Source: Microcaldota archaeon
Lineage (GTDB): Archaea > Micrarchaeota > Micrarchaeia > Micrarchaeales > Micrarchaeaceae
Length of the DNA stretch: 64,000 nucleotides
Direction of reading: 5' to 3'
NCBI GenBank assembly: GCA_021810105.1
Contig: JAJZJM010000001.1
Coordinates: 1 to 64,000 of the forward strand
Shown here: one piece after another, positions 6,874 through 63,557 of the stretch
How the letters are laid out: every line of letters begins with the position of its first letter
Position numbering within the stretch: the first letter of the stretch is position 1
The notes under the pieces: generated by a model
The model's input: only the letters and a program-made list of their open reading frames with translations
What the model was told of the DNA's origin: nothing
The model's database searches: none
Translations under genes and position numbers: made by a program

Positions 6874-8202
6874 CATCCTCCCACCACTGAAGGTGGTGGG
6901 CTTCCAATGGCGGTTTTTTGATTGGTCATCTTGAACCACCAAGTATAGTTCCTGATTCACTGACGGCTGCCTCCTGTAGTTGAGGTCTTACAACGTCTCC
7001 AGAGGCGTTACTTCCCGCATGTCCTGCGGTAGTCAGGATATTTATTGAGGCATTCAAATCTCTGTCTATTCTCATCCCGCAATTCTTGCAGAGATATGTC
7101 CTTTCACCCAATCCTATATCCTGTATGTTTCCACATTTACTGCATGTCCTTGTTGTGTTCCTTGGGTTCACACCTACAACTCTGCAACCAGCACTTTCAG
7201 CCTTGTAACAAAGATATTGGGTGAAATTGCCCCAAGAAGCATCCGTTATCTGTCTTGCAAGATTATGGTTCTTTGCCATGTTCGCAATCTTCAGTTCCTC
7301 GTATGCAATGAAGGAGTATGAATTTACAAGACGATATGAGGTCTTGTGAAGGAAGTCGTCCCTCTGCCTTGCGATATGTTCCGATATCCTTGCAAGTTTT
7401 ATCTTTGCCTTTCTCCTATTCTTGCCCCCTTTCTTCTTGTTTGAGAGCCTTCTCTGGATTGTTTTCAATTTGCAGATGGATTTATTCGAGATTCTCGGAT
7501 TTGGGATTCTTGTTCCATCAGACAAAGTTGCGTATTCCTTTAGTCCCAAGTCCATCCCTACTTGTGGTTTATTGTTTGAGAAGAGAGGGGTATCTTCCTT
7601 TTCAGTGGAAAATGTGATATACCATTCCTGCGATTTTGTCGGTTTTATCGCCATTGTTTTTATCTTTCCTTCCATATCTCTGTGGTTGACAAAGTTTATC
7701 CTGCCGATTTTTGAAACGGAAACCTTTTTCTTTTCGAGTTTGAAACCAGACTGTGGGTAAGTCAATGAAGAGACGTATGATTTGAAACGTGGGAAACCTA
7801 CCTTGACTTTCTTTCCTTGTTTTCTTTCCTTTATCCTTCTGAAGAAGTTCTTATATGCCTTTGATACTCTGTCTGCGACATTTTGGCAGACTTGGGAATA
7901 TAGTTCATTGAATTCTGGGTTCTTCTTTTTGAGTTTTGTAATCCACTTGTTCATGTCGTATTTCGTGAAAGTCTTTCCAGTTTCCTTGAAGTATTTTTGT
8001 GATTGTTCAAGAAGAAGGTTGTAGAGTTGTTTCGATAGATACATCTGACGGTTGAGTGTTGATTTCTGCGACTGAGAAGGATATGCTCTGTATCTGTACG
8101 TCTTTTTCAAGATGAACATATCCTTTTCACCATTAAATCTTATATGTGTTGCGGTTCGCTTTCATCCCACGATTGAAATCATGGGTTTTCCCGCTCACAT
8201 TT
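6870..8202 (-). mobile_element. Solo TnpB element copy 1 (no TnpA)
   Basis: Left end AAATGTGAGCGGG after ATTAT; right end ...GGAGGATGTCAC with hairpin at 6880-6900; same ends as the other copies. Confidence 0.92.
6926..8119 (-). CDS. tnpB: TnpB RNA-guided nuclease
   Basis: RuvC-like GMDLGLKEYATLSDG, AYEELKIANM, CSKCGNIQ..CKNCG zinc finger, RDLNASINIL. Confidence 0.95.
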   Translation of the reverse strand: MFILKKTYRYRAYPSQSQKSTLNRQMYLSKQLYNLLLEQSQKYFKETGKTFTKYDMNKWITKLKKKNPEFNELYSQVCQNVADRVSKAYKNFFRRIKERKQGKKVKVGFPRFKSYVSSLTYPQSGFKLEKKKVSVSKIGRINFVNHRDMEGKIKTMAIKPTKSQEWYITFSTEKEDTPLFSNNKPQVGMDLGLKEYATLSDGTRIPNPRISNKSICKLKTIQRRLSNKKKGGKNRRKAKIKLARISEHIARQRDDFLHKTSYRLVNSYSFIAYEELKIANMAKNHNLARQITDASWGNFTQYLCYKAESAGCRVVGVNPRNTTRTCSKCGNIQDIGLGERTYLCKNCGMRIDRDLNASINILTTAGHAGSNASGDVVRPQLQEAAVSESGTILGGSR

Positions 8203-8768: not shown

Positions 8769-9508
8769 CTTATCAGCTTATTCAAGGTTGCGTACTGTTT
8801 TGCCATATTCAGATGCTCTTGATATCCCTTTCCTGTATAAGAGACCAGATGGCGGTCTACCTCTTCAACAGTATCAGGTATGTGAAGAACATTGTCTATA
8901 GGCCTGCCGCTAGGTCCATCAAACATATCAACTATTGACATCCCATTGCTGAACATTTTCCTTAGCGTTCCCTCTTTTGCAAACATAGGGTCTGAACCTC
9001 CCCTTATGCTAAAAAGCTTGCTTATAGCATCGGGCCCTGAAAAGATCAGCATATAAGACTCTTTTCCCAGATAACTATTAACCTCTACATCAGTTATCCA
9101 CTTTCCTATGCCTTCTTTATCTTTTGGGTCAAGATTGTATTTTTTAAGCGTCCAATTCATTTGCTCTTCAGAAATCCCTCTACGCAAAAATGAGCTTATG
9201 ACTTTTTCACCTGTCTCGTTAAGTTTGCTCTTTCCATCAAAATGCATTCTGCGCATTTTATCAGAGATGTCTGGTGGTGTGAAAAATTCTTCCATTAAAA
9301 TTAAGCCATTTTCACTGGAAAAGTTCTTTAGATGGGCAACTATCCGATCTTTTCTTCCATCTTGCACAGTATCTGGCTTCAATATAGCGCATGCTATCTC
9401 TATAGTTGTACTTTGGCAGTCTTTTGAATTAGAAGTATGGGGTTTCGTAAGCTCCATGTCATCAATGTGTACGCTATGCCACTTTTTAATATTAATATCT
9501 GATTTCAA
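8765..9508 (-). CDS. Divergent nucleoside diphosphate kinase-like protein
   Basis: ACAILKPDTVQDG N-terminal motif and NVLHIPDTVEEVDRHL (active-site His context), with internal insertions versus typical ~150-aa NDK. Confidence 0.65.
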   Translation of the reverse strand: MKSDINIKKWHSVHIDDMELTKPHTSNSKDCQSTTIEIACAILKPDTVQDGRKDRIVAHLKNFSSENGLILMEEFFTPPDISDKMRRMHFDGKSKLNETGEKVISSFLRRGISEEQMNWTLKKYNLDPKDKEGIGKWITDVEVNSYLGKESYMLIFSGPDAISKLFSIRGGSDPMFAKEGTLRKMFSNGMSIVDMFDGPSGRPIDNVLHIPDTVEEVDRHLVSYTGKGYQEHLNMAKQYATLNKLIR

Positions 9509-10124
9509 TTTCGTTTATAGTCGAATACTGGCATTTCTAACAAGATTTATGATGAGGTTGGCGCTGCAGAAGTGCAAGCTCAAATCTAACCTGTATTTTA
9601 CATTTTTGGATCTGTAAGAATCATTTTGCTTGCTTCTTTTCGGACCAGATTTTGTCGTAGAATTTTCAAATGCGGAGTTCATATATAAGAAGATTTTGAA
9701 CACGTCTTCGAATTTATGCATATTTCCAAATGATTCGTTTACTGATATACTGATTGTCAGGAATATGCCTGCCGATTAAGTGCCTGCTATATATTACATC
9801 TTAGGTGATATATAATACAAAACTGCTATTGCGCCTGTTTAGAGTCTACTGGCTTGAACCACTCTTTTTGGCCCGTTTTGTTCTAGAATCATACTTGATT
9901 CCCAATCTTGCATATCTTCTTATTTTTTTATTTAGTTCCATTGAGCAATAGCCGAGCGTCGCTTGTATATGACGTTCAGGAGCGTTATAGGTGGCTGTAG
10001 ATTTATCGGTGATACAACTCTTAGAGGACAAGAGGCTAAAGCCGTTCAACTTTGTTATTGTTGGCAATTAAGCAACTTAAAAGGAAAACGTTAAATAAAT
10101 TGTTGAAGTATAAAATTTGATAAA

Positions 10125-10397
10125 ATGAAGGCTAAAACCATTGGCGGATTATTCGTTGTGCTAATAGGTATGGTGGTAGTAGTATACGCATCCTTTTTAT
10201 GGAACTCTAATTTTCAATTGAATAAGGCTACAAATCCTTCTTTTGTAACAAATTCATTAGTGGTAAGTGTTGAATATATCATTCTTATCATAATAGGTAT
10301 ACTGGCTTTTATCTGCGGCGGATTGATAATTAACAAAGATAAAACATTGCAAATTATGAGAAAACTAAGTGAAAATTTGGCAAGGAAGACGGCGTAA
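10125..10397 (+). CDS. Small membrane protein, AT-rich region
   Basis: 90 aa with two TM-like segments. Confidence 0.5.
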   Translation: MKAKTIGGLFVVLIGMVVVVYASFLWNSNFQLNKATNPSFVTNSLVVSVEYIILIIIGILAFICGGLIINKDKTLQIMRKLSENLARKTA

Positions 10398-10429
10398 GAT
10401 AACAGATATTTATCATAAAATATGATTGC

Positions 10430-11050
10430 ATGGTTGTAGAAAAATATCAAAGGGAATATGATATACTGATTTTGTTAACCACGCTTTTACCAATTTTTTT
10501 AGTAATATTCTTATTTGCATCTGCAAACAGTATTAACATAGAGGCAATCTCTAGTTTAGCTTCAAATAACACGCAATGGAATAATACACAACCATGTAGC
10601 AGTGCTAATTCAATCTCTTTGGAAAACCAATGTAGACTACATGAAATAATTAACGCATATGTGCCACAATACACGATAGTTTATTTCGTTGTTTTGGTCT
10701 TATTATTGTTTACTATGTTGGATGTCTCTTTTCTAGTTCTTTCTAGGTATTCATCTGACTTTATTAAGAGCATTTTTCTCTTCATTTTAGCATTACTTAT
10801 AGCTATTGAATTTGTGTATCTATCAAATGTAAATTTATTCTATGAAGGTAGCTCTAGTTTGGGTAATATTTTTTCACAGACAGCAAATTGGACGCCATTA
10901 TTAGAGTTAATTTTGATTATACCTTCTGCAATTGTGGCGTTTAGCATTGGGTGGAGTTGGTTCGATAGTTTCTTCCTAAAAAACTTTAATAAGGGTAAAA
11001 AGACTTCACGTACATCGCATCAGAAGTTACGAAAAGTAAAGAATATGTAA
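10430..11050 (+). CDS. Hypothetical multi-TM membrane protein, AT-rich region
   Basis: 206 aa ORF with about four hydrophobic segments. Confidence 0.6.
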   Translation: MVVEKYQREYDILILLTTLLPIFLVIFLFASANSINIEAISSLASNNTQWNNTQPCSSANSISLENQCRLHEIINAYVPQYTIVYFVVLVLLLFTMLDVSFLVLSRYSSDFIKSIFLFILALLIAIEFVYLSNVNLFYEGSSSLGNIFSQTANWTPLLELILIIPSAIVAFSIGWSWFDSFFLKNFNKGKKTSRTSHQKLRKVKNM

Positions 11051-11129
11051 AACCTAAGGGCAGGGTGGCGATGATATTGTTAGAAAAAGGTAACATTTGG
11101 GGCTTCTATATATAACCCCGCAAGCTCAG

Positions 11130-11189
11130 TGCTCCGATCGGGATTTGAACCCGAGTTGCAGGGTTGAAAGCCCCGCGTCCTTGGCCGAG
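11130..11189 (-). pseudogene. 5'-truncated tRNA-Glu(UUC) (3' portion from D-loop to discriminator base)
   Basis: Minus strand CTCGGCCAAGGACGCGGGGCTTTCAACCCTGCAACTCGGGTTCAAATCCCGATCGGAGCA: anticodon arm CGGGG-CTTTCAA-CCCTG and T arm intact, but no 5' acceptor or 5' D-stem upstream. Confidence 0.8.
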
Positions 11190-11213
11190 TTTGTCGTCTT
11201 TTTCTAGCTTCAT
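11184..11213 (-). pseudogene. Integrase N-terminal fragment, int(N)
   Basis: Minus strand ATG AAG CTA GAA AAA GAC GAC AAA CTC GG = MKLEKDDKLG; enters the repeat in the same frame as int(C). Confidence 0.75.
11185..11198. repeat. attL-like copy of 14-bp direct repeat CCGAGTTTGTCGTC
   Basis: Exact match to 15367-15380; encodes DDKLG in the integrase frame (minus strand). Confidence 0.85.
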
Positions 11214-11346: not shown

Positions 11347-12261
11347 TTACTTTACATTTTTAGGTTTCATTTCGTAAATGCGATTGCCTATAGCTTCATT
11401 GCAACTTTCACATAGCGTGATAAGATTACTCATTTCATCTGAACCTCCTCTGCTAAATGGAATTATATGGTGGACATGCAACTTAGCTTCCCTACTCGCC
11501 CCACACTCTTGACATATGTAATTGTCTCTTTTGAAAACTTCTATCTTTATTGAGTTTGTCAGCGTTCTCGTTCTTTTTGGCTCCTGCCCTCCAAACTCCT
11601 TTTGGAGTCTAGTAGAAACTGCATTAGTCAACAAACTTAGTTGCCTAGACGTATCAATTCCTAACTCGCTAGCAAATTGCTTTATATGAGCCGTTGAAAC
11701 AGAGAATAAATTGTCCTGCCTCGCCCTCTTAACAAGTTTATCAACAATATCCGCAAACGTAGCGCGCTCCTGCACAACTCTGTATTCTATTAGTTTCTTT
11801 CTGATATTCAGAATAATTTTACTCCATCTTATTCGTTCTTTAAGTCCATAAAGGTCAAAATATGAACGAGGCTCCTCTGCGTTTAGAGTTCCTGCCATTC
11901 TCCAAGAATAATTTGCACTATCTAAACCTATAGTTTTTAAGTCTATTTCCTTATTCAAAAACCATTCTTGAACTTCCAGTACTTCAAAAATATTTATTCG
12001 CTCATCAATAATTGTTTCTTCATCTTCCCATTTCTTAATAATTATTGAATAGATAGTATCTACAAGTAGTTTGTCATTTAGCTTCTTGGCCTTTGCCGAC
12101 ATCTTAAGTAATTCCATTTGAGTTTTGTCTCTAATTTGCAAGGCGTCTTTATTTTGCTGCTCTTCTAGGAGTAACCTCTGATTCTGCATTTTATAATAAT
12201 GCAACATCTCTCTTTGAAGTTCTTTGTCAGCTTTTGTGTTATCTGCTTTATCCATATCCAT
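11347..12261 (-). CDS. HNH endonuclease-domain protein
   Basis: C-terminal YICQECGASREAKLHVHHIIPFSRGGSDEMSNLITLCESCNEAIG; charged/coiled-coil-like N-terminus. Confidence 0.85.
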   Translation of the reverse strand: MDMDKADNTKADKELQREMLHYYKMQNQRLLLEEQQNKDALQIRDKTQMELLKMSAKAKKLNDKLLVDTIYSIIIKKWEDEETIIDERINIFEVLEVQEWFLNKEIDLKTIGLDSANYSWRMAGTLNAEEPRSYFDLYGLKERIRWSKIILNIRKKLIEYRVVQERATFADIVDKLVKRARQDNLFSVSTAHIKQFASELGIDTSRQLSLLTNAVSTRLQKEFGGQEPKRTRTLTNSIKIEVFKRDNYICQECGASREAKLHVHHIIPFSRGGSDEMSNLITLCESCNEAIGNRIYEMKPKNVK

Positions 12262-12299: not shown

Positions 12300-13349
12300 C
12301 TAAAACATTTTTGAAACGTACTCCACTACATATTGATAATAAAGTAAAACGGCGGCAGCACCTATGGCAATGCCAATAGCATTTCCAGATGGAGCGTTCC
12401 AACTAGAAAGAAACAACACAGCAATAGCGTAGAAGGGGAAAGACCTTAAAAAGCCTTTAGCTGAAGTAAATTGCCCTTCTTTAGGAAGTTCAATGCCAAA
12501 GAATTTGGCCGGCATCACTATTAACATCCATGCTATGAAATAGAATAGGAATACAGATAGTCCCCATTCCAAGTAAGCTAAAGTTCCTGTGTGAAGAGAG
12601 AGCAATATCATCCATATCGCATTCAGAAAAGGCATTATAAATACGATAAAAAGGAAACCGCTTGTTATAAGTGTTGGTACAAGTTTATTTCCCCGTCCTT
12701 TCTTGCTTTTCTTTTCGTTTTTGATTGCATTGGCTTGCCCTTTAATAACCTCATTAAATATTCCGATTGTTTTATGTAGAAGCTCTAATGCTTTTTCTCT
12801 TCCAATCCATCCATGCGGTGCATCTACAACTTTGCCATGCTGCATTTTAAGCCAGGCTTTATCTTCATACTGTCCATAATGTACTGTGGCATTCCCGTAA
12901 CTTCTTATATAATCAATTCTACCTATCAACTTATCATTGACAATTCCAGCCTTCTTTGCGTCCTTCAATATGTTTCCCCACTCAGCATCAATCCAATCAA
13001 AATCTATCTTTACTAGCCCTCCTCCAAAGTCCTTCGGTTTATTTGTTCTTCTTGCTAATGAGAAGTAAACGACAGCTTCGGTAACTGCTCTGCACATTAT
13101 TGCGGTACCCATATATGCTCCATTCTGATAGCAAGAATAAGCTTCCCTAAGCAGGTCTAATGAAGGTAGCGATATTAATGCCACCTTATCATATGCGCTT
13201 ATATCAACAACTTCCTTTGCCAATTTCTCCGTGTCTTTAGTTCGACTTTCCCGCCACTTATCTGCTTTGGTTATACCTATTACTGACTGCTCCATCTCAG
13301 CTTCACGTTTCTGAGGCTCAGTTTCAGGCATACTATAAGTATATTCCAA
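12300..13349 (-). CDS. DUF4145-like domain protein with C-terminal TM segments
   Basis: AYSCYQNGAYMGTAIMCRAVTEAVVYFSLA ... DYIRSYGNATVHYGQ resembles DUF4145; several hydrophobic helices follow. Confidence 0.55.
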   Translation of the reverse strand: MEYTYSMPETEPQKREAEMEQSVIGITKADKWRESRTKDTEKLAKEVVDISAYDKVALISLPSLDLLREAYSCYQNGAYMGTAIMCRAVTEAVVYFSLARRTNKPKDFGGGLVKIDFDWIDAEWGNILKDAKKAGIVNDKLIGRIDYIRSYGNATVHYGQYEDKAWLKMQHGKVVDAPHGWIGREKALELLHKTIGIFNEVIKGQANAIKNEKKSKKGRGNKLVPTLITSGFLFIVFIMPFLNAIWMILLSLHTGTLAYLEWGLSVFLFYFIAWMLIVMPAKFFGIELPKEGQFTSAKGFLRSFPFYAIAVLFLSSWNAPSGNAIGIAIGAAAVLLYYQYVVEYVSKMF

Positions 13350-13399: not shown

Positions 13400-14032
13400 T
13401 TATGGTAGCTTATAATCTTGCTCCGCCGCAATAAAATTAGGCGTGCACCCTTTCTGCCCATGCCATATGACTTTGATTTCTGGGTCAAGCATTATTATAG
13501 GTCGCTTGGATAGATGGTAGCCCTGAGCTTTATGTTTTATATATTCTCTAATGGCTTCTTCGTGGCTTTTATTGCTGTCAACTATCCGCTTTTGAATGGC
13601 CTTCTTTGTAATGTCCATCTTCTTACCATTGAACCCTTCCTCTTTAGGTATGGCCATTCTAGCATTTCTCCATAGTGCTCTGTTGTCAATGCCTTCGTAA
13701 AGCATGTAAACATCGTAATCGTTTATCTTTTGATTTGGGCATTGCATTTCTTTGTAATAGTTAGCATTCTCATAGTCTTTCGATCCATTAGCTTTCAAGA
13801 GGGACTTATCACCCATCAAATAGGTATTAATAAGCCCAGCCTTGCACATGTAGTAAGTAGTCGAGCCTTGGCACAGGAACAACCCTATATACTTAATTCC
13901 CTTACCTCTCACACTAGGATAATTCGCTGTTTTGTCTGCGAAGGTCTTGATTTGCTCAGAGTTTGTCAAGTAGTCTCTAAGTTCTTCCAGCTCCTTTTGG
14001 ACTTCTGCATTAAAGGTCATTTTGTTGTTCAT
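13400..14032 (-). CDS. Hypothetical protein (element cargo)
   Basis: 210 aa ORF; no family recognised. Confidence 0.6.
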   Translation of the reverse strand: MNNKMTFNAEVQKELEELRDYLTNSEQIKTFADKTANYPSVRGKGIKYIGLFLCQGSTTYYMCKAGLINTYLMGDKSLLKANGSKDYENANYYKEMQCPNQKINDYDVYMLYEGIDNRALWRNARMAIPKEEGFNGKKMDITKKAIQKRIVDSNKSHEEAIREYIKHKAQGYHLSKRPIIMLDPEIKVIWHGQKGCTPNFIAAEQDYKLP

Positions 14033-14501: not shown

Positions 14502-15369
14502 CTAGAAGGGCTTGGAAAGCCTTGCTTTCAGGCCAGAAGCCCGCTCTACCGAAAAGGCTTCGTCCACGGCCTTGTAAAGCTCGTCTTTTCGTGTGTTTAT
14601 GTAGGTCATAGTAGTGCTTGGGTCGCTATGCCTAGCGAACCTGCTGGAAAGCACCACATTCCCGTTACTCTGGCGGGCGAAGCTGGTGATTGCATAGTGC
14701 ATCAGACTGTGGGTAGTCAGCCTATGGAGCCGCCTAGGCGTCCTTCCGTATGATTCCTCGCTCTGGTCGTAGACTTCGTCCAGTCTGGCTTGCTGGACAT
14801 ACCCCCTGAACACCTTCCGCACGTAGTTCTTCTCTAGGAACGGCTCGCCCCTTAGGCTGTGCCCAAGCTCTGCAAAAAACACGAACCCGCCAGCTTGCGT
14901 GATCGCTTGCTCGTTGCGGTTTATGAACTCAACAGTTTGCCGAAATAATGGGATTGGAATGAGCATCGTATCTATCACGTGCGCCTTTTCCGTTTTCACG
15001 GTCAGCTCACGTGTCTCGAACTTTATATCCTTAACATTGACCTTGACAGCTTCGCCTATCCTGAGCCCAAGCTGTGCTTGATACCCAAACAATAGGCGAA
15101 ACTTGTCATTTTCTATGACTTTGAAGAAGGCTTGCACCTCCTGTTCCGTGAAGCCCTTATTGAGGCTTCCGTACTTCGGAGGAGCATTGCCCCTGAAACG
15201 TCTCTTTTTGATGTTGTAGATTACGGACAGAACGTCCTTAATCTCGTGGAAACTAAGCTGCGGTAGCACCTCTTGAATGTGCTTCTTGAGTTTTTCGGGT
15301 TCGGTCTCCGTGATGGAACCGAACCGTATCCTGTTAAATTTCTTATCCTTGGCTAGGGAACTGAACCCG
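14502..15369 (-). pseudogene. Tyrosine recombinase/integrase C-terminal fragment, int(C)
   Basis: LGLRIGEAVKVNVKDI (box I Arg), TTHSLMHYAIT, RHSDPSTTMTYINTRKDELYKAVD. Frame stays open upstream of the GTG at 15269 through FSSLAKDKKFNRIRFGSITETEPEKLKKHIQE to the repeat. Confidence 0.85.
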
Positions 15370-15380
15370 AGTTTGTCGTC
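15367..15380. repeat. attR-like copy of 14-bp direct repeat CCGAGTTTGTCGTC
   Basis: Exact match to 11185-11198. Confidence 0.85.
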
Positions 15381-15392
15381 GAAAATTTGATT

Positions 15393-15467
15393 TGCTCCGA
15401 TCGGGATTTGAACCCGAGTTTCAGCCTTGAGAGGGCCGTGTCCTTGACCGAGCTAGACGATCGGAGC
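15393..15467 (-). tRNA. tRNA-Glu(CUC)
   Basis: GCTCCGATCGTCTAGCTCGGTCAAGGACACGGCCCTCTCAAGGCTGAAACTCGGGTTCAAATCCCGATCGGAGCA folds as a cloverleaf; anticodon loop CTCTCAA. Confidence 0.93.
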
Positions 15468-17989: not shown

Positions 17990-18099
17990 CGGGCTCGGCG
18001 GGATTTGAACCCGCGGCCTATGTCTTTCCCCTTTTGATTGAACTTTTCCTAAAAGCCCATTAGGAGGACATCGCTCTATCCAAGCTGAGCTACGAGCCC
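17990..18099 (-). tRNA. tRNA-Arg(CCU) with ~35-nt intron at 37/38
   Basis: GGGCTCG...CGAGCCC acceptor; anticodon stem ATGTC/GACAT interrupted after CTCCTA by ATGGGCTTTTAGGAAAAGTTCAATCAAAAGGGGAA. Confidence 0.88.
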
Positions 18100-18569: not shown

Positions 18570-19902
18570 GTGACATCCTCCCACCACTGAAGGTGGTGGG
18601 CTTCCAATGGCGGTTTTTTGATTGGTCATCTTGAACCACCAAGTATAGTTCCTGATTCACAGACGGCTGCCTCCAGTAGTTTAGGTCTTACAACGTCTCC
18701 AGAGGCGTTACTTCCCGCATGTCCTGCGGTAGTCAAGATATTTATTGAGGCATTCAAATCTCTGTCAATCTTCAGTCCGCAATTCTTGCAGAGATATGTC
18801 CTTTCACCCAATCCCATATCCTGTATGTTTCCACATTTACTGCATGTCCTTGTTGTGTTCCTTGGGTTCACGCCTACGACTCTGCAACCAGCACTTTCGG
18901 CCTTGTAGCAGAGATATTGGGTGAAGTTGCCCCAAGAAGCATCCGTTATCTGTCTTGCAAGATTATGGTTCTTTGCCATATTCGCAATCTTCAGTTCCTC
19001 GTATGCAATGAATGAGTATGAATTTACAAGACGATATGAGGTCTTGTGAAGAAAGTCGTCCCTCTGCCTTGCAATATGTTCCGATATCCTTGCAAGTTTT
19101 ATCTTTGTCCTTCTTCTGTTCTTGCCTCCTTTCTTCTTGTTTGAGAGCCTTCTCTGGATTGTTTTCAGTTTGCCGATGGATTTATTCGAGATTCTCGGAT
19201 TTGGGATTCTTGTTCCATCAGACAAAGTTGCGTATTCCTTTAGTCCCAAGTCCATCCCTACTTGTGGTTTATTGTTTGAGAAGAGAGAGGTATCTTCCTT
19301 TTCAGTGGAAAATGTGATATACCATTCCTGCGATTTTGTCTGTTTTATCGCCATTGTTTTTATCTTTCCTTCCATATCTCTGTGGTTGACAAAGTTTATC
19401 CTGCCGATTTTTGAAACGGAAACCTTTTTCTTTTCGGGCTTGAAACCCAATTGTGGGTAAGTCAATGAAGAGACGTATGATTTGAAACGTGGGAAACCTA
19501 CCTTGACTTTCTTTCCCTGTTTTCTTTCCTTTATCCTCCTGAAGAAGTTCTTATATGCCTTTGAGACCCTGTCCGCAACATTCTGGCAGACCTGCGAATA
19601 CAGTTCATTGAATTCTGGGTTCTTCCTTTTGAGTTTTGTAATCCACTTGTTCATGTCGTATTTCGTGAAGGTCTTTCCAGTTTCCTTGAAGTATTTTTGT
19701 GATTGTTCAAGAAGAAGGTTGTAGAGTTGTTTCGAGAGATACATCTGACGGTTGAGTGTTGATTTCTGCGACTGCGACGGATATGCCCTGTATCTGTACG
19801 TCTTTTTCAAGATGAACATATCCTTTTCACCATTAAATCTTATATGTGTTCTGGTTCGCTTTCATCCCACGATTGAAATCATGGATTTTCCCGCTCACAT
19901 TT
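18570..19902 (-). mobile_element. Solo TnpB element copy 2
   Basis: Same ends as copy 1; left end abuts CTTAT; right-end hairpin 18580-18600. Confidence 0.92.
18626..19819 (-). CDS. tnpB: TnpB RNA-guided nuclease
   Basis: 397 aa, RuvC and zinc-finger motifs intact. Confidence 0.95.
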   Translation of the reverse strand: MFILKKTYRYRAYPSQSQKSTLNRQMYLSKQLYNLLLEQSQKYFKETGKTFTKYDMNKWITKLKRKNPEFNELYSQVCQNVADRVSKAYKNFFRRIKERKQGKKVKVGFPRFKSYVSSLTYPQLGFKPEKKKVSVSKIGRINFVNHRDMEGKIKTMAIKQTKSQEWYITFSTEKEDTSLFSNNKPQVGMDLGLKEYATLSDGTRIPNPRISNKSIGKLKTIQRRLSNKKKGGKNRRRTKIKLARISEHIARQRDDFLHKTSYRLVNSYSFIAYEELKIANMAKNHNLARQITDASWGNFTQYLCYKAESAGCRVVGVNPRNTTRTCSKCGNIQDMGLGERTYLCKNCGLKIDRDLNASINILTTAGHAGSNASGDVVRPKLLEAAVCESGTILGGSR

Positions 19903-29008: not shown

Positions 29009-29203
29009 TTACTTTGCTTTCTTTAGCAATCCGCCTTTCTTTATCACCATTATTATCCCATCAATCTGCCTTCGCAGAGTTCTTTCTGTATAATCATTTT
29101 TTAAGGAGATGTCAGTCTTTATCATCCAGGTACTTTTTTCTGTTGGGTCGTTAATTTCATTTCGAGTCGGCTTTCTGCCATACAGCTTTCTGTATGCCTT
29201 TAT
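29009..29203 (-). pseudogene. C-terminal half of nucleotide kinase-like gene split by TnpB element
   Basis: KAYRKLYGRKPTRNEINDPTEKSTWMIKTDISLKNDYTERTLRRQIDGIIMVIKK; in frame with 30536-30970 when the element is removed. Confidence 0.9.
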
Positions 29204-30535
29204 AAATGTGAGCGGGAAAACCCATGATTTAAATCGTGGGATGAAAGCGAACCGCAACACATATAAGATTTAATGGCGAAAAGGATATGGTCATCTTGAA
29301 AAAGACGTACAGATACAGGGCGTATCCTTCAAAGGAACAGAAAGCAAGATTGAATAGGCAGATGTATCTATCGAAACAACTCTACAACCTTCTTCTTGAA
29401 CAATCACAAAAATACTTCAAGGAAACAGGAAAGACTTTCACGAAATACGACATGAACAAGTGGATTACAAAACTCAAAAAGAAGAACCCAGAATTCAATG
29501 AACTATATTCCCAAGTCTGCCAGAATGTCGCGGACAGAGTCTCAGGGGCATACAAGAACTTCTTCAGAAGGATAAAGGAAAGAAAACAGGGAAAGAAAGT
29601 CAAGGTAGGTTTCCCACGTTTCAAATCATACGTCTCTTCATTGACTTACCCACAGTCTGGTTTCAAACTCGAAAAGAAAAAGGTTTCCGTTTCAAAAATC
29701 GGCAGGATAAACTTTGTCAACCACAGAGATATGGAAGGAAAGATAAAAACAATGGCGATAAAACAGACAAAATCGCAGGAATGGTATGTCACATTTTCCA
29801 CTGAAAAGGAAGATACTCCTCTCTTCTCAAACAATAAACCACAAGTAGGGATGGACCTGGGGCTAAAGGAATACGCAACTTTGTCTGATGGAACAAGAAT
29901 CCCAAATCCGAGAATCTCGGATAAATCCATCTGCAAATTGAAAACAATCCAGAGGAGGCTCTCAAACAAGAAGAAAGGGGGCAAGAATAGGAGAAGGGCA
30001 AAGATAAAACTTGCAAGGATATCGGAACATATTGCAAGGCAGAGGGACGACTTTCTTCACAAGACCTCATATCGTCTTGTAAATTCATACTCATTCATTG
30101 TATACGAGGAACTGAAGATTGCAAACATGGCAAAGAACCATAATCTTGCAAGACAGATAACGGATGCTTCTTGGGGCAACTTCACCCAATATCTCTGCTA
30201 CAAGGCTGAAAGTGCTGGTTGCAGAGTTGTAGGTGTGAACCCAAGGAACACAACAAGGACATGCAGTAAATGTGGAAACATACAGGATATAGGATTGAGT
30301 GAAAGGACATATCTCTGCCAAAATTGCGGACTGAAGATTGACAGAGATTTGAATGCCTCAATAAATATCCTGACTACCGCAGGACTTGCGGGAAGTAACG
30401 CCTCTGGAGACGCTGTAAGACCTCAATTACAGGAGGCAGCCGTCAGTGAATCAGGAACTATACTTGGTGGTTCAAGATGACCAATCAAAAAGCCGCCATT
30501 GGAAGCCCACGGCTTCAGTCGTGGGAGGATGTCAC
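29204..30535 (+). mobile_element. Solo TnpB element copy 3, inserted in a coding gene
   Basis: Starts AAATGTGAGCGGG after TTTAT, ends GGAGGATGTCAC; excision gives RLECDENAR-IK-AYRKLYG in frame with no duplication. Confidence 0.95.
29287..30480 (+). CDS. tnpB: TnpB RNA-guided nuclease
   Basis: 397 aa, RuvC and zinc-finger motifs intact. Confidence 0.95.
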   Translation: MVILKKTYRYRAYPSKEQKARLNRQMYLSKQLYNLLLEQSQKYFKETGKTFTKYDMNKWITKLKKKNPEFNELYSQVCQNVADRVSGAYKNFFRRIKERKQGKKVKVGFPRFKSYVSSLTYPQSGFKLEKKKVSVSKIGRINFVNHRDMEGKIKTMAIKQTKSQEWYVTFSTEKEDTPLFSNNKPQVGMDLGLKEYATLSDGTRIPNPRISDKSICKLKTIQRRLSNKKKGGKNRRRAKIKLARISEHIARQRDDFLHKTSYRLVNSYSFIVYEELKIANMAKNHNLARQITDASWGNFTQYLCYKAESAGCRVVGVNPRNTTRTCSKCGNIQDIGLSERTYLCQNCGLKIDRDLNASINILTTAGLAGSNASGDAVRPQLQEAAVSESGTILGGSR

Positions 30536-62225: not shown

Positions 62226-63557
62226 GTGACATCCTCCCACCACTGAAGGTGGTGGGCTTCCAATGGTGGTTTTTTGATTGGTCATCTTGAACCACCAAGT
62301 ATAGTTCCTGATTCACTGACGGCTGCCTCCTGTAATTGAGGTCTTACAGCGTCTCCAGAGGCGTTACTTCCCGCAAGTCCTGCGGTAGTCAGGATATTTA
62401 TTGAGGCATTCAAATCTCTGTCAATCTTCAGTCCGCAATTTTGGCAGAGATATGTCCTTTCACTCAATCCTATATCCTGTATGTTTCCACATTTACTGCA
62501 TGTCCTTGTTGTGTTCCTTGGGTTCACACCTACAACTCTGCAACCAGCACTTTCAGCCTTGTAACAAAGATATTGGGTGAAATTGCCCCAAGAAGCATCC
62601 GTTATCTGTCTTGCAAGATTATGGTTCTTTGCCATATTCGCAATCTTCAGTTCCTCGTATGCAATGAATGAGTATGAATTGGCAAGACGATATGAGGTCT
62701 TGTGAAGGAAGTCGTCCCTCTGCCTTGCGATATGTTCCGATATCCTTGCAAGTTTTATCTTTGTCCTTCTCCTGTTCTTGCCTCCTTTCTTCTTGTTTGA
62801 AAGCCTTCTCTGGATTGTTTTCAATTTGCAGATGGATTTATCCGAGATTCTCGGATTTGGGATTCTTGTTCCATCAGACAAAGTTGCGTATTCCTTTAGT
62901 CCCAAGTCCATCCCTACTTGTGGTTTATTGTTTGAGAAGAGAGAGATATCTTCCTTTTCAGTGGAAAATGTGACATACCATTCCTGCGATTTTGTCTGTT
63001 TTATCGCAAGTGTCTTTATCTTTCCTTCTATCTCCCTATGATTGACGAAATTGACCCTGCCGATTTTTGAAACGGAAACCTTTTTCTTTTCGAGTTTGAA
63101 ACCAGACTGTGGGTATGTCAATGAAGAGACGTATGATTTGAAACGTGGGAAACCTACCTTGACTTTCTTTCCTTGTTTTCTTTCCTTTATCCTTCTGAAG
63201 AAGTTCTTGTATGCTTTTGAGACCCTGTCCGCGACATTCTGGCAGACTTGGGAATATAGTTCATTGAATTCTGGGTTCTTCTTTTTGAGTTTTGTAATCC
63301 ACTTGTTCATGTCGTATTTCGTGAAGGTCTTTCCAGTTTCCTTGAAGTATTTTTGTGATTGTTCAAGAAGAAGGTTGTAGAGTTGTTTCGAGAGATACAT
63401 CTGACGGTTGAGTGTTGATTTCTGCGACTGCGACGGATATGCCCTGTATCTGTACGTCTTTTTCAAGATGAACATATCCTTTTCACAATTAATCTTATAT
63501 GTGTTGCGGTTCGCTTTCATCCCACGATTGAAATCATGGGTTTTCCCGCTCACATTT
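62226..63557 (-). mobile_element. Solo TnpB element copy 4
   Basis: Same ends; left end abuts TTTAT; right-end hairpin 62236-62256. Confidence 0.92.
62282..63553 (-). CDS. tnpB: TnpB RNA-guided nuclease (true start probably at internal MFILKKTYRYRAYPS)
   Basis: RuvC and zinc-finger motifs intact; N-terminal extension reads through the left end. Confidence 0.93.
   Translation of the reverse strand: MSGKTHDFNRGMKANRNTYKINCEKDMFILKKTYRYRAYPSQSQKSTLNRQMYLSKQLYNLLLEQSQKYFKETGKTFTKYDMNKWITKLKKKNPEFNELYSQVCQNVADRVSKAYKNFFRRIKERKQGKKVKVGFPRFKSYVSSLTYPQSGFKLEKKKVSVSKIGRVNFVNHREIEGKIKTLAIKQTKSQEWYVTFSTEKEDISLFSNNKPQVGMDLGLKEYATLSDGTRIPNPRISDKSICKLKTIQRRLSNKKKGGKNRRRTKIKLARISEHIARQRDDFLHKTSYRLANSYSFIAYEELKIANMAKNHNLARQITDASWGNFTQYLCYKAESAGCRVVGVNPRNTTRTCSKCGNIQDIGLSERTYLCQNCGLKIDRDLNASINILTTAGLAGSNASGDAVRPQLQEAAVSESGTILGGSR

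What the first reader, a model, noticed from the sequence alone, without database searches (positions are those of the whole stretch)
11130..11213. tRNA-Glu(UUC) lacks its 5' acceptor and D-stem: integration casualty, serial integration scar, or split-tRNA half
The 3' part from the D-loop through the T-arm is well formed (anticodon UUC) but upstream sequence is int(N), not an acceptor strand. The expected 5' half (ending ...GTCTAG, starting GCTCCGA) is also absent at the other element end: only AATCAAATTTTC separates the repeat from tRNA-Glu(CUC). A simple one-step integration does not explain this. One model is an earlier related element whose int(N) relic (QIFDDKLG) remains at the right end. 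Another is a trans-spliced tRNA; split tRNA-Glu is known in Nanoarchaeum equitans. Some source of tRNA-Glu(UUC) is needed to read GAA.
Basis: partly seen in the sequence, partly recalled or inferred. Interest (0 to 1): 0.72.

Follow-up and report, generated by a model that had tools for sequence, protein, structure and literature searches.

The report
Integrase-split element in tRNA-Glu gene
The headless tRNA-Glu(UUC) is the copy left at one end of a 4.3-kb mobile element that inserted into the neighbouring tRNA-Glu(CUC) gene of a tiny archaeon (Micrarchaeota), cutting its own integrase gene in two; no tRNA function was lost and no split tRNA is involved.

Summary
The fragment is real, but it is neither a split-tRNA half nor a broken host gene. 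The window is from a Micrarchaeota genome. A 4,263-bp element carries its attachment site inside its integrase gene, as SSV-type ("suicidal") integrases do. It recombined with the T-arm of tRNA-Glu(CUC). One end (attL) is an intact tRNA-Glu(CUC) whose 3' part reads in frame into int(C). The other end (attR) is int(N), ten codons MKLEKDDKLG, joined to the element's own tRNA-Glu(UUC)-derived D-loop-to-3'-end, then host flank. The "missing" 5' half is simply the 5' half of tRNA-Glu(CUC).

Evidence: an intact tRNA-Glu(UUC) lies on another contig; the closest relative has the empty site with CUC; the tRNA is CUC in all seven relatives where it was found; 16 other loci carry the same int(N)+UUC attR, two with CUC attL ends like this one; attR arms are near-uniform, attL arms follow the host.

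Modest novelty: the integrase is PF00589/Xer-like, lacks the PF16795 domain of described suicidal integrases, and its crossover 3' of the anticodon lets it move between isoacceptors.

The parts
15393..15467 (-). intact tRNA-Glu(CUC), the attL end; 5' part host, 3' part from the T-arm on supplied by the element
   Evidence: CUC in all seven genus relatives
15393..15420 (-). attL copy of the 28-nt tract AACTCGGGTTCAAATCCCGATCGGAGCA in which the crossover took place
14502..15452 (-). int(C): open frame that starts inside the tRNA 3' part and runs through NQIFDDKLGFSS into the PF00589 catalytic domain; HxxR Arg is Met in this copy
13400..14032 (-). element ORF, 210 aa, unknown
12300..13349 (-). 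element ORF, 349 aa, weak DUF4145 match, membrane segments at the C-terminus
11347..12261 (-). element ORF, 304 aa, C-terminal HNH nuclease domain
11184..11213 (-). int(N): start codon and first ten codons MKLEKDDKLG (the last two overlap the tRNA part)
   Evidence: conserved in 16 other loci
11130..11189 (-). attR: element-borne tRNA-Glu(UUC) from D-loop to 3' end, ending in the host's original acceptor strand
11130..11157 (-). attR copy of the 28-nt crossover tract

Best explanation
The fragment is the attR end of a 4.26-kb integrative element. In the free circular element (inferred) the integrase gene runs MKLEKDDKLG - [tRNA-Glu(UUC) D-loop to 3' end read as protein: QGRGAFNPATRVQIPIGA] - NQIFDDKLGFSS... 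- catalytic domain, so attP lies inside int. The integrase exchanged strands with the T-arm of the host tRNA-Glu(CUC), within the 28-nt identical tract AACTCGGGTTCAAATCCCGATCGGAGCA. The host gene stays an intact tRNA-Glu(CUC), its last part supplied by the element, and int(C) continues from it. The displaced end is int(N) plus the element's UUC-type arm plus the host's original 3' end and flank. Integration separates the integrase start codon from its body, so the gene is silenced or truncated. Shown by sequence: anatomy, empty site in the closest relative, CUC at the locus in relatives, element-borne UUC arm, crossover 3' of the anticodon arm. Inferred: circular intermediate, exact cleavage site, loss of integrase activity on integration.
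For: int frame open through the tRNA part at both ends and when joined; 16 further loci with the same int(N)+UUC part; closest integrases (87-94%) sit directly behind tRNA-Glu; 20 of 21 related integrases with a tRNA upstream read through its 3' part; one contig has int(N)-tRNA part-int(C) start uninterrupted; element-free locus with full synteny in G005; tRNA-Glu(CUC) in seven genus relatives; attR arms differ by 1.1 positions on average, attL arms by 5.8; element-free UUC gene L155 matches the attL arm, not the attR arm, of L134; two further CUC-attL/UUC-attR cases (L203; L141+L137); intact tRNA-Glu(UUC) on contig C5.
Against: No circular or unintegrated form was found; both scans of viral contigs failed. 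The acceptor strand in both ends is CUC-type (ATCGGAGC) while the UUC genes looked at have other acceptor bases, so the element's attP must already have matched, or was selected or corrected to match. L141 and L137 are two contigs, joined only by inference.
Confidence: 0.94

Rival explanations
1. Split tRNA: the fragment is the 3' half of a trans-spliced tRNA-Glu(UUC), joined to a 5' half made elsewhere.
Against: Intact tRNA-Glu(UUC) on contig C5; no orphan 5' half above background; the leader is int(N) coding sequence conserved in 16 other loci.
Confidence: 0.01
2. Anticodon switch: the host gene was tRNA-Glu(UUC); crossover in the D-loop replaced its 3' part by a CUC version carried by the element, and the UUC remnant is the host's old part.
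For: CTCGG in the D-loop is shared by both ends; SSVK1 integration into tRNA-Glu is reported to have made a tRNA-Asp (PMC8371274).
Against: The tRNA is CUC in all seven genus relatives; all 17 attR ends, in many genera, carry the same UUC arm; attL arms follow the host, attR arms the element.
Confidence: 0.03
3. Serial integration: two related elements came in one after the other and the first left its int(N) relic (QIFDDKLG) at the right end.
For: GACGACAAACTCGG occurs at both ends; tandem elements do occur in the family (MAS5.bin21, L136); a low-GC stretch beyond attR could be an older insert.
Against: NxIxDDKLGF follows the tRNA in most integrases of the tRNA-Glu group, so it is part of int(C). 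The distance from the NDK gene to the tRNA is about the same in the element-free relative.
Confidence: 0.02

Closest known systems
SSV-type (type I, suicidal) integrases of SSV1/SSV2, pTN3, pT26-2 (PMC8371274)
   Same: attP inside the integrase gene, tRNA target restored, int split into int(N) and int(C) at the two ends, about 40-60 nt of tRNA 3' part at the far end
   Different: Catalytic domain is PF00589 and Xer-like, not PF16795; int(N) is only ten codons; the SSV1 crossover is reported at the anticodon loop, here it is 3' of the anticodon arm
SSVK1 and SSVA/pXZ1 integrations in Sulfolobus (cited in PMC8371274)
   Same: Integration at a non-cognate tRNA or at two near-identical tRNA-Glu genes
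   Different: There SSVK1 changed the tRNA identity; here tRNA-Glu(CUC) keeps its anticodon, only the displaced copy is UUC
Caldiarchaeum tRNA-Thr disruption by a recombinase element (PMC3293823)
   Same: tRNA fragment and a recombinase-bearing element at a tRNA locus of an uncultured archaeon
   Different: There introns and a 5' fragment are involved; here a 3' fragment and no intron
Partial tRNA genes from integration in Thermococcaceae (PMC9897764)
   Same: A 3' tRNA fragment left by integration, not a functional gene
   Different: There fragment and gene are copies of one tRNA; here the two ends are different isoacceptors

Membership tests
Self-splitting (suicidal, type I) integrase, by behaviour | att site inside the integrase coding sequence, int split by integration | tested here: met
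   Open frame through both ends and across the junction; same layout in the family
Self-splitting (suicidal, type I) integrase, by behaviour | Target tRNA restored at one end, displaced 3' part next to int(N) at the other | tested here: met
Self-splitting (suicidal, type I) integrase, by behaviour | Split integrase inactive after integration | not testable with these tools
   Only the loss of start codon and ten codons is shown; in relatives with an ATG or GTG in the acceptor, int(C) could still be translated
SSV/pTN3/pT26-2 integrase family (PF16795) | Phage_integr_3 domain PF16795 | tested here: not met
   No PF16795 hit at E up to 10 for two intact relatives and a tRNA-Ala relative nor at 0.001 for the window copy; SSV1 control 207 bits
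Tyrosine recombinase (PF00589) | Phage_integrase domain above Pfam cut-off | tested here: met
   39.5 bits against cut-off 27.1 in the window; about 49 in relatives
Tyrosine recombinase (PF00589) | Catalytic R..HxxR..H..Y | tested here: inconclusive
   Complete in the full-length relatives; in the window copy the HxxR Arg is Met, so this copy is probably dead
XerA | NCBIfam NF040815 score above cut-off 220 | tested here: not met
   45-55 bits: related, not XerA
Split (trans-spliced) tRNA | Orphan 5' half elsewhere and no intact gene | tested here: not met

The most novel reading that the evidence does not exclude
Micrarchaeota host a separately evolved lineage of self-splitting integrases (Xer-like, not PF16795) in which the tRNA 3' part encodes the protein's N-terminus, the T-loop core is repeated inside the gene, and crossover 3' of the anticodon lets one element move between tRNA isoacceptors without harming them.
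Probability: 0.5. Interest if true: 0.55.

Novelty: new variant of a known kind. Interest (0 to 1): 0.38.

Why it matters
It removes a false split-tRNA candidate and gives a simple way to read such fragments: look for the integrase frame running through the tRNA. A 2021 review of archaeal tyrosine recombinases holds that self-splitting integrases arose once, in the PF16795 group; these Xer-like integrases appear to do the same by another route. The natural attL/attR pairs bound the crossover and show how elements can change target gene without harming an essential tRNA.

Tried and rejected
Split tRNA: tested by tRNA inventory and a 5'-half pattern search; rejected. Anticodon switch on integration: tested with relatives' loci and attL/attR arms; rejected. 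Serial-integration scar at the right end: rejected because NQIFDDKLG belongs to int(C). Filing under the PF16795 family: tested with SSV1 as control; not met. Two scans of viral contigs for a free form got no answer. A first script to link integrases with tRNAs missed most loci because its motif was too strict and was redone. Literature searches for such integrases in Micrarchaeota gave nothing, but the held library lacks most subscription journals.

Full report
What is there. On the minus strand, 11189-11130 reads CTCGGCCAAGGACGCGGGGCTTTCAACCCTGCAACTCGGGTTCAAATCCCGATCGGAGCA, a tRNA-Glu from D-loop to 3' A with anticodon UUC and no acceptor or D-stem 5' strand. The only tRNA-Glu called in the window is the CUC gene at 15467-15393. 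The two share a 67-nt direct repeat at 84% identity, 4,263 bp apart.

The 5' half is not missing. GCTCCGATCGTCTAG lies at 15467-15453 as the 5' half of tRNA-Glu(CUC). The genome holds one more such 5' half, in an intact tRNA-Glu(UUC) at C5:37895-37821; the other pattern matches are at the level of the reversed control. So GAA codons are served, and no orphan half exists in this assembly (93.6% complete).

The integrase gene runs through the tRNA. Minus-strand translation after the TAG of GTCTAG gives LGQGHGPLKAETRVQIPIGANQIFDDKLGFSSLAKDKKF... straight into a PF00589 integrase. At the other end the same frame reads MKLEKDDKLGQGRGAFNPATRVQIPIGA. Joining the two in the 28-nt identical tract gives one open frame. 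This is the anatomy of SSV-type integration: int(N) with a tRNA 3' part at one end, a restored tRNA running into int(C) at the other.

The family. The closest integrases (87-94% identity) are in other Micrarchaeota and sit directly behind tRNA-Glu genes. A search of 165 genomes of the order with int(N) plus the tRNA part gave 17 full-length matches, 16 of them outside this window. All 17 carry the UUC loop, and the flanks differ. Twenty of 21 related integrases with a tRNA upstream (Glu, Val, Leu, Ala, Gly) read through its 3' part; these are relatives, so the count is not a set of independent events. One contig (MAS5.bin21) has int(N)-tRNA part-int(C) start without interruption.

Which part is host, which is element. 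The locus was found in G005 with genes in the same order on both sides and no element, and tRNA-Glu(CUC) was found in seven genus relatives. Hence the target gene was CUC before integration. Anticodon arms at seven paired attR ends differ by 1.1 positions on average, at eight attL ends by 5.8. In one related group the element-free UUC gene (L155) matches the attL arm of a neighbour's occupied gene (L134), not its attR arm. In clean425 the first T-stem base also differs between the ends (AACCCGGG against AACTCGGG), which puts the crossover 3' of it. So the UUC arm travelled with the element, and a UUC-type attP recombined with a CUC gene through the shared T-arm. The same mismatch of ends (CUC at attL, UUC at attR) is seen twice more: L203 (one contig, element mostly deleted) and L141 with L137, two contigs that overlap inside int(C), so that their being one element is an inference.

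State of the element. Its integrase has Met in place of the HxxR arginine that all full-length relatives in the alignment keep, and after the split the frame has no ATG, GTG or TTG start before 15269, so this copy is probably dead. Cargo is an HNH nuclease, a DUF4145-like protein and an unknown protein.

Comparison with known systems. It works like SSV-type integration. By the domain that marks the described suicidal integrases (PF16795; PMC8371274) it is not a member: the control SSV1 integrase hits PF16795 at 207 bits, these proteins do not, and the only solved relative found by sequence is a XerC-like/XerA recombinase, 4a8e. That this is a second origin of self-splitting is an inference that needs a tree. 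Off-target and isoacceptor-level integrations have precedents in Sulfolobus viruses (SSVK1, SSVA/pXZ1, cited in PMC8371274), and partial tRNA genes left by integration are well documented (PMC9897764).

Open points. Acceptor bases agree at both ends in most complete pairs, as expected if only integrations that rebuild a working tRNA survive, but this prevents finer mapping. T-loop cores GGGTTCAAATC recur at fixed offsets (+24, +66) inside int in family members, 17 against 0.4 expected (related copies, not independent events). They could be integrase-binding repeats or traces of earlier att captures.

Noticed in passing
window 15336-15374 (-); L203, L218, L219, L221 just 3' of tRNA-Glu: T-loop core GGGTTCAAATC (or GGGTTCAGTTC) recurs inside int(C) at +24 and in some members +66 nt from the tRNA 3' end; possible integrase-binding repeats or old att captures.
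   Followed up: partly
window 11119-11078 (-); L059, L060, L070, L084, L134, L137, L160, L170, L171: A block GGGGTTATATATA...AAATGT(C/T)...TTCTCTAACATAGTTTTAGCATGG directly follows tRNA 3' ends or tRNA fragments at several loci, not only tRNA-Glu; perhaps the end of another mobile element or a shared downstream signal.
   Followed up: partly
L129:7890-8010: In YP3.bin123 int(C) is preceded by a tRNA-Glu(UUC) 3' part that begins at the anticodon loop; the 5' half is not there, though an intact tRNA-Glu(UUC) lies elsewhere (L148). Rearrangement or assembly break.
   Followed up: partly
window 6926-8119, 18626-19819, 29200-30510 (inverted), 62252-63492: Four copies, about 95-97% alike, of an IS605-type OrfB/TnpB-like gene.
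   Followed up: no
window 17990-18099 (-): A tRNA found by the Rfam model but not by ARAGORN, 110 nt long and so presumably intron-bearing.
   Followed up: no
G000:C3:365356-366111; G000:C4:44661-45285: Two more integrases of the same broad family in this genome, one beside a tRNA-Pro, one broken beside a tRNA-Gly.
   Followed up: no
window 9500-11130: Low-GC stretch (0.31-0.36) with two small ORFs without Pfam hits and without a match in the syntenic relative G005; maybe an older insert beyond attR.
   Followed up: no
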